From the NCBI RefSeq assembly GCF_000730165.1, contig NZ_CP022111.1:744001-808000 (forward strand): DNA of 64,000 nucleotides, read 5' to 3'. Every line of letters begins with the position of its first letter. The first letter of the stretch is position 1. Under the pieces are notes generated by a model. The model made no database searches. It saw nothing but the letters and a program-made list of their open reading frames with translations, and was not told the origin of the DNA. The DNA comes from Nitrospirillum viridazoti CBAmc (GTDB lineage: Bacteria; Pseudomonadota; Alphaproteobacteria; Azospirillales; Azospirillaceae). This document shows positions 16,426 through 19,812 of the stretch, in pieces. Both the position numbers and the translations under genes were made by a program.

Positions 16426-16451
16426 CGGTCCGCAGGGACCGTGCTGTTTTT
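16426..16451 (+). terminator. Weak terminator after the MATE gene
   Basis: CGGTCC (16426-16431), loop GCAG, GGACCG (16436-16441), then GTGCTGTTTTT (T5 at 16447-16451). The short stem makes this a moderate candidate; it would separate the MATE gene from the peptide cluster. Confidence 0.45.
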
Positions 16452-16516: not shown

Positions 16517-16550
16517 CCCTTCGAAAACAGTGGCCCTTTCAAAACAGTGG
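16517..16550 (+). repeat. 17-bp tandem duplication just before the first GDL peptide gene
   Basis: Two abutting 17-bp copies (16517-16533 and 16534-16550) match at 15 of 17 positions and share the core AAAACAGTGG. The second copy ends 8 nt before the ATG of the first peptide gene and its last bases run into the ribosome-binding GGGG. Confidence 0.7.
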
Positions 16551-16558
16551 GGAAAACG

Positions 16559-16741
16559 ATGACGATCATTCAGCCTTATGGCGTTGCCATCACCCAGGCC
16601 ATCGCGAGCGGCGACCTGGAGGAAATGAAGCGGGCCAAGGCCCTGGCCGAGGACCACGTCCAGCGTTACGGCGACATCCCGACGCTGCTGACGCACCTGA
16701 AGGCGGCCATCGCCAAGCTTGAGGCCGGCAAGACGCCCTGA
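16559..16741 (+). CDS. DUF1843-type small peptide 1 (Y-x(10)-GDL motif), putative radical SAM substrate
   Basis: 60 residues, mostly helical, without cysteine and without a signal peptide. It contains Tyr7 followed by exactly ten residues and GDL, then HVQRYGDIPTLLTHLK and a Lys/Ala-rich tail IAKLEAGKTP. It is one of three tandem paralogues directly upstream of a radical SAM/SPASM gene. I recognise the motif as that of the DUF1843 / Y_X(10)_GDL family, which occurs next to such enzymes; no product is known to me. ATG 16559 is preceded by GTGGGGAAAACG; a GTG at 16547 is possible but less likely. Confidence 0.8.
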   Translation: MTIIQPYGVAITQAIASGDLEEMKRAKALAEDHVQRYGDIPTLLTHLKAAIAKLEAGKTP

Positions 16742-16800
16742 TTCCGAAGCCCGGACAGGGCCTTTTCACGTCCACAACTACAACTTATAAGGGATATATC

Positions 16801-16980
16801 ATGAGTCACATCCCCCTTTATGCCGTCGCCGCCACCCAGGCCATCGCCAAGGGCGACCTGGCGCACCTGAAGAGCCTGCATGCCGAGGCTGAGAAGCACC
16901 TGCAGGAATACGGCGACGTCGCCACCGTGCTGCAGCTGCTGAAGGTTGAAATCGCCAAGGCCGAGGCCGCCAAGCCCTGA
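16801..16980 (+). CDS. DUF1843-type small peptide 2 (Y-x(10)-GDL motif)
   Basis: 59 residues, short enough to be missed by 60-residue cut-offs. Same ungapped layout as its neighbours: Tyr7-x(10)-GDL, then LQEYGDVATVLQLLK and VEIAKAEAAKP. It is the most diverged copy: it has YAVAA where the others have YGVAI, and lacks the PTLLTH stretch. RBS AAGGGA lies 7 nt before the ATG. The 59-nt spacer after peptide 1 is unusually AT-rich (ACAACTTATAAGGGATATATC region). Confidence 0.8.
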   Translation: MSHIPLYAVAATQAIAKGDLAHLKSLHAEAEKHLQEYGDVATVLQLLKVEIAKAEAAKP

Positions 16981-17009
16981 TCCCAAGCGCCAAACCCGGG
17001 AGGTAAACC

Positions 17010-17192
17010 ATGTCATCCGTTCACACTCTGTACGGCGTCGCTATCACCGATGCCATCGCCAAGGGCGACCTGGCGGAACTGAAGAAGCTGGCCGCCGAGG
17101 CCGAGGCGCATGTGCAGCAATACGGCGACGTCCCCACCCTGCTGACGCACCTGAAGCTGGAGATCGCCAAGGCCGAGGCGCGCAAGCCCTGA
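17010..17192 (+). CDS. DUF1843-type small peptide 3 (Y-x(10)-GDL motif)
   Basis: 60 residues with Tyr8-x(10)-GDL, then HVQQYGDVPTLLTHLK and EIAKAEARKP. Closest to peptide 1 in the middle (YGDxPTLLTHLK) and to peptide 2 at the C-terminus (EIAKAEAxKP), as if sampled from a common ancestor with exchange. It has the strongest ribosome site of the three (GGGAGGT, 6 nt before ATG). It is followed after 78 nt by the radical SAM gene. Confidence 0.8.
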   Translation: MSSVHTLYGVAITDAIAKGDLAELKKLAAEAEAHVQQYGDVPTLLTHLKLEIAKAEARKP

Positions 17193-17212
17193 GCCCGGTG
17201 CCGTCTTGAGGC

Positions 17213-17238
17213 CGGCCGGCGCTTACGGGTGCCGGCCG
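17213..17238 (+). terminator. Possible attenuator between peptide 3 and the radical SAM gene
   Basis: Perfect 8-bp GC stem CGGCCGGC (17213-17220) with GCCGGCCG (17231-17238), 10-nt loop, followed by CTTTCCC. The T-tract is poor, so read-through is expected. A partial terminator here would give more peptide than enzyme, the ratio usual in precursor/maturase operons. Confidence 0.4.
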
Positions 17239-17270
17239 CTTTCCCGCCCATCTCTCAAGGAACCCGCCCC

Positions 17271-18761
17271 ATGGACACCAGCGCGTCCGCCCTGTCGCCT
17301 GCCCCGCAAGAGGTGCCCGTCCGCTTCCGCCGGATGGAGGACCACCACAACCTGGTGCCGGTGCATGTGGTGTGGGAGATCACGCTGGCCTGCAATCTGA
17401 AGTGCCAGCATTGCGGTTCCCGCGCCGGCCGGCCCCGCGCCGATGAGCTGACCACGGCGGAGGCGCTGGACCTGGTTGACCAACTGGCGGCCCTCGGCAC
17501 GCGCGAGATGACCCTGATCGGGGGGGAGGCCTATCTGCGCCGCGACTGGATCGACATCGTGCGCCGCTGCCGCGACCATGGCATGCGCACCGCCATCCAG
17601 ACCGGCGCCCGCAACCTGACCGACGCCCGCCTGGACCAGGCGGTAGCGGCCGGCCTGCAGGGGCTGGGCGTCTCCATCGATGGCTTGCCCGATCTGCACG
17701 ACCGGGTGCGCGGCGTCCCCGGCTCCTACGACCAGGCCATCAGCGCGCTGCGCCGGGCCAAGGTGCTGGGCCTGGACGTGTCGGTCAACACCCAGATCGG
17801 GCCGGAGACGCCGGCCCATCTGCCGGACCTGATGGACCGCATCATCGAAGCGGGCGCCACCCACTGGCAGATCCAACTGACCGTGGCCATGGGCAACGCC
17901 GTCGACAACCCCGACCTGCTGCTGCAGCCCTATCAGCTGATCGACGTCATGCCCCTGCTGGCCCGCCTGTATCAGGAGGGGGTGGAGCGCGGGCTGCTGA
18001 TGATCGTGGGCAACAACATCGGCTATTTCGGGCCCTATGAGCGCATGTGGCGCGGCTATGGCGATGAGTCCATGCACTGGACCGGCTGCGCCGCCGGCCA
18101 GACCACCATCGGCATCGAGGCCGACGGCACCATCAAGGGCTGCCCCTCGCTGGCCACCTCGCTCTATTCCGCCGGTCATGTGCGCGACATGACGGTGGAG
18201 GATATCTGGCGCCATACGGAGCGCATCAGCTTCGGCCGTCTGCGCTCGGTGGAGGAGATGTGGGGCTATTGCCGCACCTGCTACTACGCCGACGCCTGCC
18301 GCGCCGGCTGCACCTGGACGTCCGAATCGCTGCTGGGCCGCCGGGGCAACAACCCCTACTGCCACCACCGGGTGCTGGATCTGGCCAAGCACGGCCTGCG
18401 CGAGCGGGTGGTGAAGGTCAAGGAGGCGCCACCAGAGAGCTTCGCCATTAGCGAATTCGCCCTGATCACCGAGGCCATCCCGGGCATGGAGGATGCGCCA
18501 CCCCTGCCGGCACGCGACCCGGAACATGTCCACATCCACCCCCGCGAGCGCGCGGCGGGCGGCGGCACCACGCCGCCCAGGCTGGAGGTCTGCCGGGGCT
18601 GCGACCAATACATCTGGCCGCACGAGGAGACCTGCCCCCATTGTGGCTCAGACGTGGCCGCCGAAGCCGCCCGCCACGCGGAGGACACCGCCCGCCGCCG
18701 TGCCCTGATAGAGCAGGCCAAGCGCTTCCTGGCAGGCCTGCAGACGGCGGGGATGGAGTGA
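17271..18761 (+). CDS. Radical SAM/SPASM enzyme associated with Y-x(10)-GDL peptides
   Basis: 496 residues. The radical SAM core carries Cys41, Cys45 and Cys48 in CNLKCQHC and the SAM-contacting GGEAY (about 84-88). A SPASM-type C-terminal region has Cys273, 291, 334, 337, 343, 347 and 364, enough for two auxiliary Fe-S clusters, as in peptide-modifying maturases. Residues 441-458 add a CxxC...CxxC zinc-ribbon (CRGC, CPHC), followed by a charged helix. It lies downstream of three tandem small peptides, its likely substrates or partners. ATG 17271 is preceded by AAGGAA; an ATG 42 nt upstream is possible. Reaction and modified residue are unknown; the peptides lack Cys, so a thioether is ruled out unless another protein supplies sulfur. 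Confidence 0.9.
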   Translation: MDTSASALSPAPQEVPVRFRRMEDHHNLVPVHVVWEITLACNLKCQHCGSRAGRPRADELTTAEALDLVDQLAALGTREMTLIGGEAYLRRDWIDIVRRCRDHGMRTAIQTGARNLTDARLDQAVAAGLQGLGVSIDGLPDLHDRVRGVPGSYDQAISALRRAKVLGLDVSVNTQIGPETPAHLPDLMDRIIEAGATHWQIQLTVAMGNAVDNPDLLLQPYQLIDVMPLLARLYQEGVERGLLMIVGNNIGYFGPYERMWRGYGDESMHWTGCAAGQTTIGIEADGTIKGCPSLATSLYSAGHVRDMTVEDIWRHTERISFGRLRSVEEMWGYCRTCYYADACRAGCTWTSESLLGRRGNNPYCHHRVLDLAKHGLRERVVKVKEAPPESFAISEFALITEAIPGMEDAPPLPARDPEHVHIHPRERAAGGGTTPPRLEVCRGCDQYIWPHEETCPHCGSDVAAEAARHAEDTARRRALIEQAKRFLAGLQTAGME

Positions 18762-18819
18762 GTTCTCGTCTTGGGATTGGGCGCGGCAGTTTATTTATTA
18801 ACAGATAAATCCTGAATAA

Positions 18820-19359
18820 TTATGGCCTTGTAAGTACTTGGCATTCAACATTATAGAATGTCTGGCTCTGAATTTTATTCCCGATCTTATTTCGGGTCGC
18901 GGAATCACTATTGGTCATCAGGAGATAATATCCTCTATATTTGAATAGAGTTTCCTTAGAGAAATCGCCATTAGCCTGTATTTCTTTAAATGTTATTTTG
19001 GACTCACTGAGATTTTGCTCCGCTCCAACTACCTGGCCAACTTTCTCAGATCCCTGGTATATGCCATCTGGGTCGGTATTTTCCTTGTCCGATGGAATTT
19101 GTTTTTCGATCGATGAATATATTTTTTGATTATTCTCATATTCATCATTCCACGCGCTATATCCAACGTAAAAAACCCCTAAGATAATAAGAATAACTTC
19201 AATAGTTGTGCGTGTTTTCTGGGGTATTACGCCAAATTTTTCGTGCATTGCTGGAAAAAATCTTTTCAATATTTTATCAATAGCCAGAAGATAGCCACCT
19301 CCACACCACTTTAACAGGGGGATGATGGTAATGAAGATGTATGTAAATACATTGTTCAT
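18820..19359 (-). CDS. AT-rich orphan gene: two-helix membrane protein of unknown function
   Basis: 179 residues encoded by DNA of only about 36% G+C, against about 69% around it, with codons (ATA, AAT, TTT, TTA) otherwise rare here. That strongly suggests horizontal transfer. Two hydrophobic stretches (about 5-28 and 52-70) are followed by a soluble C-terminal domain (about 75-179) with ITFKEIQ and a Tyr-rich segment (LFKYRGYYLL). I recognise no family. The ribosome-binding site is poor. No mobility gene flanks it and it lies alone between the radical SAM gene and gmk. It could be a defence or toxin-like cargo gene, but nothing in the sequence shows that. Confidence 0.6.
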   Translation of the reverse strand: MNNVFTYIFITIIPLLKWCGGGYLLAIDKILKRFFPAMHEKFGVIPQKTRTTIEVILIILGVFYVGYSAWNDEYENNQKIYSSIEKQIPSDKENTDPDGIYQGSEKVGQVVGAEQNLSESKITFKEIQANGDFSKETLFKYRGYYLLMTNSDSATRNKIGNKIQSQTFYNVECQVLTRP

Positions 19360-19812
19360 ATTTTGGTCCCAGATGAAATAAGTTTATCTGATGTAATGGA
19401 TGCAGGTCGAAATCCCCCTTCAAAAAGGGGTCAACTCTCCAACGTAAATGCGATATCGTGCCAGCCGTTAGTGGCATCGTCCATAACTCGAATCGGCTGT
19501 TAGCTGATGATGGTTTTGAACACGCCCCGATCACTGCCGCCTTCCGGTGTCAGGATCAAGAGGGTGCAGCCAGCACGGATGCACCAGCGCTGATCGTGCA
19601 AATAGACCACACCTGGCCGCCCCGCGCCGCGCTCAGATCCAACGGGGGCGGCGACACGGGGCGGCCATTGCGGGTCCCGCTCCGCCGTCGGCGGCAGTTT
19701 CCAGGAAAGCAGACAACGCGGCCGACTGCCTGTCGGCCGCATGGCCCTGCGCCGAAAAGGTGATGGTGGTAAGGAAGCTGCCACCGGGGCCGGGTCCCGG
19801 CGGCGCATGGCC
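19360..19812. other. Gene-poor stretch between the AT-rich gene and gmk
   Basis: About 450 nt where composition returns from about 40% to about 68% G+C. Short open frames exist on both strands but have no start signals or recognisable products. The right half probably marks the junction of the transferred segment. No terminal inverted repeats or tRNA remnant was visible. Confidence 0.5.
19718..19740 (-). terminator. Candidate gmk terminator
   Basis: Perfect 9-bp stem GCGGCCGAC (19718-19726) with GTCGGCCGC (19732-19740) and a 5-nt loop; minus-strand continuation GTTGTCTGCTTTCC is moderately T-rich. It lies 73 nt beyond the gmk stop codon. Confidence 0.5.

What the first reader, a model, noticed from the sequence alone, without database searches (positions are those of the whole stretch)
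16517..18761. Three-peptide Y-x(10)-GDL cluster with a radical SAM/SPASM maturase
Three tandem 59-60 residue genes (16559, 16801, 17010) share an invariant Tyr, exactly ten residues, GDL, and then a YGD motif and an IAK.EA.K tail, and lie directly upstream of a radical SAM/SPASM enzyme. This is the layout of a RiPP precursor set with its maturase. I recall the Y_X(10)_GDL/DUF1843 pairing from family databases but no product or function. The peptides lack Cys, so chemistry should target Tyr, Asp, Lys or backbone rather than thioethers. No protease or exporter is obvious; the MATE gene upstream and the 116-aa protein are not linked. The peptides may not be exported at all, but be modified in place as small protein cofactors.
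Basis: partly seen in the sequence, partly recalled or inferred. Interest (0 to 1): 0.8.

Follow-up and report, generated by a model that had tools for sequence, protein, structure and literature searches.

The report
Small proteins with tyrosine-splicing-type enzyme
Three tiny helical proteins sit beside an iron-sulfur enzyme whose closest well-studied relative cuts a tyrosine piece out of protein backbones, so this operon probably makes small proteins carrying a reactive ketone at one invariant tyrosine site; the gene pairing is already catalogued, the product is not.

Summary
The three genes are DUF1843 proteins (PF08898) and the enzyme is TIGR03913, a family already named for this pairing. 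Wherever I checked, the two occur together and adjacent (12/12 genomes in the order, 73/73 fetched loci); nothing else is conserved. The invariant feature is one Tyr in the frame [L/P/M]-Tyr-[G/A/M] (199/199 distinct domains) at the start of helix 1. GDL is common, not invariant, and YGD is nearly confined to alphaproteobacteria; both sit at predicted helix turns, so they are probably structural. The enzyme's only close relative of known chemistry is the PlpX splicease family (TIGR04103: 440 bits against 157 for the next family; [quoted passage not shown] I therefore predict tyramine splicing at the first Tyr, done in place on an intracellular helical protein. Departures from PlpX: no leader, no PlpY/RRE gene, a zinc ribbon on the enzyme, Ala often for Gly, and fusion to DUF1842 beta-barrels elsewhere. 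No mass change has been shown. A 2022 splicease survey that I could not read may already cover this family.

The parts
16559..16741 (+). Peptide 1, DUF1843, 60 aa (possible GTG start at 16547)
   Evidence: PF08898 70.3 bits; purifying selection
16574..16582 (+). Predicted splice site Pro6-Tyr7-Gly8 of peptide 1
   Evidence: Tyr invariant in 199/199 distinct domains, always [LPM]Y[GAM]
16801..16980 (+). Peptide 2, DUF1843, 59 aa
   Evidence: PF08898 73.2 bits
16816..16824 (+). Predicted splice site Leu6-Tyr7-Ala8 of peptide 2 (Ala in place of Gly)
17010..17192 (+). Peptide 3, DUF1843, 60 aa; predicted helices 8-18, 21-38, 41-57
   Evidence: PF08898 74.3 bits; AlphaFold2 mean pLDDT 79.5
17028..17036 (+). 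Predicted splice site Leu7-Tyr8-Gly9 of peptide 3
17271..18761 (+). Radical SAM/SPASM maturase, TIGR03913, 496 aa, predicted splicease
   Evidence: 749.7 bits TIGR03913, 440.2 bits TIGR04103; fold of SkfB, PqqE, SuiB
17391..17414 (+). Radical SAM motif CNLKCQHC (residues 41-48)
   Evidence: invariant in 25 aligned relatives
18591..18644 (+). C-terminal zinc-ribbon-like module CRGC...CPHC (residues 441-458), followed by a long helix
   Evidence: four Cys invariant in 25 relatives; PF12172 24.4 bits; absent from the Nostoc PlpX-type enzyme
16426..16441 (+). Terminator-like hairpin with T tail between the MATE gene and peptide 1
   Evidence: consensus scan only; 2 found against 1.4 expected, so weak

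Best explanation
The operon makes three small cytoplasmic three-helix proteins and the enzyme that modifies them. The enzyme (SHOWN by sequence: radical SAM motif, SPASM cysteines, sister of the PlpX family) would cleave SAM to a 5'-deoxyadenosyl radical and act on the single invariant Tyr near the N-terminus of each DUF1843 protein. INFERRED from PlpX: it removes the tyramine part of that Tyr (net loss of C8H9NO, about 135.07 Da) and joins the remaining carbonyl to the preceding Leu/Pro/Met, leaving an electrophilic alpha-keto-beta-amino residue at the start of helix 1. The helical DUF1843 body would serve as a C-terminal recognition element in place of a leader, and the enzyme's zinc ribbon may do the job that PlpY does for PlpX (speculative). 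The modified proteins stay in the cell; the most likely use of the ketoamide is reversible covalent capture of a nucleophile, for example inhibition of a protease (speculative).
For: Second-best family after TIGR03913 is TIGR04103 at 440 bits, next 157; reciprocally a Nostoc TIGR04103 enzyme scores 414 bits to TIGR03913, next 154. 45% identity over 412 aligned residues against 23-29% for other radical SAM enzymes; shared radical SAM and SPASM cysteines and blocks such as GNNIGY.GP.E and GNNPYC. PlpX, in a SPASM subclass with Nif11-type precursors, excises tyramine from X-Tyr-Gly, native sites MYG and LYG (PMC10533398, PMC11002830). The Nostoc locus has a Nif11 precursor whose core is GSIALYGLPPELF. 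DUF1843 site is LYA 82, PYG 74, LYG 34, MYM 6, MYA 2, LYM 1 of 199; strict xYG occurs in 70/73 loci, and in the other 3 a PYG plus helix 1 fragment has been grafted onto a DUF1842 N-terminus. Only Tyr and one Gly are invariant. No conserved exporter or protease. Fusions and proteomic detection of an intact DUF1842 protein (CV_0868, PMC4216352) fit in-place modification.
Against: No mass-spectrometric evidence. Family kinship does not prove the same chemistry. 42% of domains have Ala after Tyr, and one divergent homologue has Asp (AVYDP, L117), whereas PlpX is described with XYG. No PlpY-like gene is present although PlpX works with PlpY. That TIGR04103 is the PlpX family rests on my knowledge that IPR026482 equals TIGR04103 plus the matching gene layout; PlpX itself was not available to align. 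The protease-inhibitor role is not tested here.
Confidence: 0.62

Rival explanations
1. The enzyme acts on the invariant Tyr but does different chemistry, such as oxidative decarboxylation or a Tyr crosslink like MftC or PqqE, or a keto/epimer product without excision.
For: MftC (mycofactocin) and PqqE families also act on Tyr-containing peptides and match weakly (116 and 100 bits). Ala or Met after Tyr in 46% of domains is not the canonical XYG.
Against: Those families score some 325 bits lower than the PlpX family; no second residue at a fixed crosslinkable position is invariant except Gly.
Confidence: 0.22
2. The proteins are precursors of a small exported peptide (ordinary RiPP) cut out by host proteases encoded elsewhere.
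For: Precursor-maturase layout; multiple paralogous precursors are usual in RiPPs. A MATE exporter lies upstream in Nitrospirillum.
Against: No leader, no GG site, the Tyr lies only 6-8 residues from the N-terminus; MATE gene conserved only within Nitrospirillum (3 loci of 73); DUF1842 fusions put the site in the middle of a ~200-aa protein.
Confidence: 0.1
3. DUF1843 is a scaffold or partner domain of the enzyme and is not modified; or it assembles into a larger complex, as proposed from tandem paralogues.
For: Beeby et al. proposal quoted in PMC10994174.
Against: PMC10994174 found the DUF1842-DUF1843 protein monomeric; an invariant Tyr in a flexible N-terminal tail is hard to explain by assembly.
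Confidence: 0.06

Closest known systems
[quoted passage not shown]
   Same: Everything: enzyme over cut-off, three tandem DUF1843 genes directly upstream.
   Different: Nothing of note; alphaproteobacterial form without DUF1842.
PlpXY splicease and spliceotides (Pleurocapsa plp cluster; TIGR04103)
   Same: Sister enzyme family, same SPASM layout; substrate site X-Tyr-Gly in most operons.
   Different: No Nif11/NHLP leader, site N-terminal to the folded domain, no PlpY/RRE gene, extra C-terminal zinc ribbon, Ala frequent at +1.
DUF1842-DUF1843 proteins of Burkholderia, Pseudomonas, Chromobacterium (PDB 8t0b, 8t1m, 8t1n)
   Same: Same DUF1843 domain and Tyr frame (AMYGVAI in 8t0b), same enzyme downstream.
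   Different: DUF1843 is the C-terminal tail of a beta-barrel; in the window it stands alone.
Mycofactocin MftA/MftC and PQQ PqqA/PqqE
   Same: Small peptide plus SPASM radical SAM enzyme acting on a conserved Tyr.
   Different: Enzymes only distantly related (116 and 100 bits against 440); no release peptidase or downstream genes here.

Membership tests
TIGR03913 GDL-peptide maturase | Score over the curated cut-off 591.75 | tested here: met
   749.7 bits
TIGR03913 GDL-peptide maturase | Adjacent Y-x(10)-GDL (DUF1843) peptides | tested here: met
   three PF08898 genes 79 bp or more upstream
PlpX splicease (TIGR04103) | Score over the curated cut-off 725 | tested here: not met
   440.2 bits: a sister family, not a member
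PlpX splicease (TIGR04103) | Radical SAM and SPASM cysteines shared | tested here: met
   alignment with Nostoc TIGR04103 enzyme
PlpX splicease (TIGR04103) | Partner PlpY (truncated RRE) encoded next door | tested here: not met
   no hit to PlpY-like P0003 among ORFs of the loci, no conserved downstream ORF; hhalign of A2 with P0003 not significant
Spliceotide precursor | X-Tyr-Gly splice motif | tested here: met
   peptides 1 and 3 (PYG, LYG); peptide 2 has LYA; strict xYG in at least one site of all 73 loci counting the grafts
Spliceotide precursor | Nif11- or nitrile-hydratase-like leader | tested here: not met
   no NCBIfam/Pfam leader hit; hhalign with Nif11 precursor not significant, aligning only the LYG segment
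Spliceotide precursor | Loss of C8H9NO and alpha-keto-beta-amino residue | not testable with these tools
   needs mass spectrometry

The most novel reading that the evidence does not exclude
A leaderless branch of the spliceases that carries its recognition module as a zinc ribbon on the enzyme (instead of PlpY) and splices tyramine out of folded cellular proteins, including DUF1842 beta-barrel proteins, at X-Tyr-Gly and X-Tyr-Ala, so that alpha-ketoamide warheads are a normal, quorum- and stationary-phase-controlled feature of cytoplasmic proteins in Proteobacteria, Acidobacteria, Myxococcota and Bacteroidota.
Probability: 0.35. Interest if true: 0.72.

Novelty: new member of a known kind. 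Interest (0 to 1): 0.48.

Why it matters
Two domains of unknown function (DUF1842, DUF1843), strongly induced by quorum sensing in Chromobacterium (PMC12114271) and in stationary phase in Burkholderia thailandensis (PMC12322963), would get a definite chemistry: an electrophilic ketoamide made at one Tyr. It would extend ribosomal backbone splicing from leader-guided peptides to folded proteins, and a leader-free splicease with a 60-aa substrate would be a handy tool for site-specific protein labelling, which PlpXY already serves with a ten-residue tag (PMC10533398).

Tried and rejected
Chemistry at Asp/Lys/GDL/YGD: rejected, these are not invariant and lie at predicted helix turns. MATE exporter and downstream gene as parts of the system: rejected, conserved only within Nitrospirillum or not at all. 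116-aa ORF: antisense shadow. Search for a PlpY/RRE homologue: none (the ORF file lacked a positive control). Fold search of the DUF1843 model in the PDB: no significant match (best E 2.8), so no functional hint. Solved relatives of the enzyme: only distant RiPP maturases. DUF1843 as Nif11-derived: not significant. Phylogenetic tree with other radical SAM enzymes: the group of TIGR03913, PlpX-type, Aureibacter and Tropicibacter holds together against the host's other enzymes, but long branches leave its inner order unresolved. TIGR04103 in cyanobacterial genomes could not be searched (no handle). The key survey (Scott et al. 2022, Chem 8:2659) is not held. RNA families: none. Weak DUF1843 hits in 742-774-aa proteins of G201, G210, G233, G545, G572 cover only profile positions 13-50, lack the Tyr region and have no enzyme where tested; treated as chance or helical-repeat matches.

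Full report
What is there. Three genes of 60, 59 and 60 codons at 16559-16741, 16801-16980 and 17010-17192 precede a 496-codon gene at 17271-18761, all on the + strand with short gaps. The small proteins are DUF1843 (PF08898, 70-74 bits, cut-off 23.3). [quoted passage not shown]). The host genome holds these three DUF1843 genes and this one TIGR03913 gene only. Codon changes among Nitrospirillum strains are mostly synonymous. The host is close to Nitrospirillum amazonense (95-96% enzyme identity).

Pairing. In 82 genomes of the order, 12 have DUF1843 and the same 12 have TIGR03913, always within a few hundred bases. In a second family, the three genomes with full-length DUF1843 matches are the three with the enzyme. 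Each of 73 loci fetched with the enzyme alone has one to four DUF1843 sequences directly upstream. Across these loci nothing else is shared beyond single lineages, and no small gene like PlpY follows the enzyme. The MATE, MarR, outer-membrane, AraC and gmk neighbours are kept only in Nitrospirillum. The patchy distribution (12/82; about 1% of a phylum sample; also on plasmids of Azospirillum and Aureibacter) suggests horizontal transfer.

The site. In 199 distinct domains the Tyr is invariant and its neighbours are restricted: LYA 82, PYG 74, LYG 34, MYM 6, MYA 2, LYM 1. GDL exactly follows ten residues later in 141 of 205 domains; YGD is present in 40 of 55 alphaproteobacterial domains but 4 of 150 others. 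(The per-locus -1/+1 counts picked a wrong nearby Tyr in a few Chromobacterium domains; the alignment-based counts are the ones to use.) The AlphaFold2 model of peptide 3 has helices at 8-18, 21-38 and 41-57 with Tyr8 at the start of helix 1, the G19-D20 turn between helices 1 and 2, and Y38-G-D at the turn between helices 2 and 3 (mean pLDDT 79.5, first ten residues 59). GDL and YGD are thus best read as helix-capping turns and Tyr as the target.

A natural experiment. In three Chromobacterium loci (L085, L096, L106) the free PYG peptide is missing, but the N-terminus of the first DUF1842 protein has gained a piece, (A/V)PPYGTALQQA, that looks like the PYG site plus helix 1 of the lost peptide. 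What is retained is the Tyr site, not the whole DUF1843 body. In beta- and gammaproteobacteria the commonest operon has one short PYG protein and two DUF1842-DUF1843 fusions with LYA (36 loci). The site then lies in the linker to the C-terminal helical domain, the part that was disordered in the crystals of Q63NT7 (PMC10994174).

The enzyme. After TIGR03913 the next best family is TIGR04103, nif11-class peptide radical SAM maturase 3, at 440 bits; the third is at 157. A Nostoc TIGR04103 enzyme gives the mirror image: 853, 414, then 154 bits. Identity is 45% over 412 residues (48% in the best local segment), with the radical SAM cysteines, the SPASM cysteines and long shared blocks. The predicted fold matches SkfB, PqqE and SuiB. 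The literature says that PlpX belongs to a SPASM subclass (IPR026482) with Nif11 or nitrile-hydratase-like precursors, works with the truncated RRE protein PlpY, and excises tyramine from Xaa-Tyr-Gly to leave an alpha-ketoamide (PMC11002830; PMC10533398). That IPR026482 is TIGR04103 is my own knowledge. The Nostoc locus has that layout: a Nif11 precursor ending GSIALYGLPPELF, the enzyme, and a 71-aa gene overlapping it by 4 bp.

Differences. TIGR03913 enzymes carry a C-terminal zinc ribbon with four invariant cysteines (residues 441, 444, 455, 458) that the Nostoc enzyme lacks. In a divergent alphaproteobacterial locus (L117) the ribbon is a separate 86-aa ORF that overlaps the enzyme gene by 4 bp, as the PlpY-like gene does in Nostoc; in Tropicibacter a ribbon sits at the N-terminus. 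I suggest, without proof, that the ribbon replaces PlpY; there is no sequence similarity between them.

Mechanism and its status. Shown: gene identity, pairing, invariant Tyr frame, enzyme kinship, absence of leader, RRE gene and exporter in the loci. Inferred: tyramine excision at the Tyr (0.62), modification in place. Speculative: ketoamide as reversible protease trap. A review reports that beta-residues give such peptides protease inhibition (PMC10373908). Expression data (quorum-sensing induction; stationary phase; proteomic detection of a DUF1842 protein) show that the relatives are made in quantity in cells.

Novelty. The cluster is a plain member of a catalogued pair. The chemistry proposed is known from PlpX. 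The variant (leaderless, no RRE gene, ribbon on the enzyme, Ala at +1, folded-protein substrates) would be new if the 2022 Chem survey, whose title speaks of 'peptides and proteins', has not already covered it; I could not read it.

Noticed in passing
window 18762-19500, ORF 18820-19359 (-): AT-rich island (GC about 0.37 in 0.68 surroundings) with a 179-aa ORF of no known family; absent from three close strains, where the gmk gene lies soon after the maturase gene (L039, L041) or a little further (L040).
   Followed up: partly
L117:1425-3133: Divergent homologue with a single DUF1843 protein whose site is AVYDP (Asp after Tyr), and the zinc ribbon encoded as a separate ORF overlapping the radical SAM gene by 4 bp (GTGA).
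   Followed up: partly
L085:4667-5320, L106:4648-5301: Apparent graft of the PYG site plus helix 1 onto the N-terminus of a DUF1842 protein in Chromobacterium loci that lack the free short peptide.
   Followed up: yes
L114:1112-9319: Tropicibacter oceani plasmid: splicease-like enzyme with an N-terminal zinc ribbon, no DUF1843, in a run with another radical SAM gene, a phosphotransferase-like, a trypsin-like and an M23 peptidase gene; substrate unknown.
   Followed up: no
L113:2643-6971: Aureibacter (Bacteroidota) plasmid: three 56-aa DUF1843 proteins (VLYA, PMYA, QPYG) between a RimK-type ligase gene and a SAM methyltransferase gene.
   Followed up: partly
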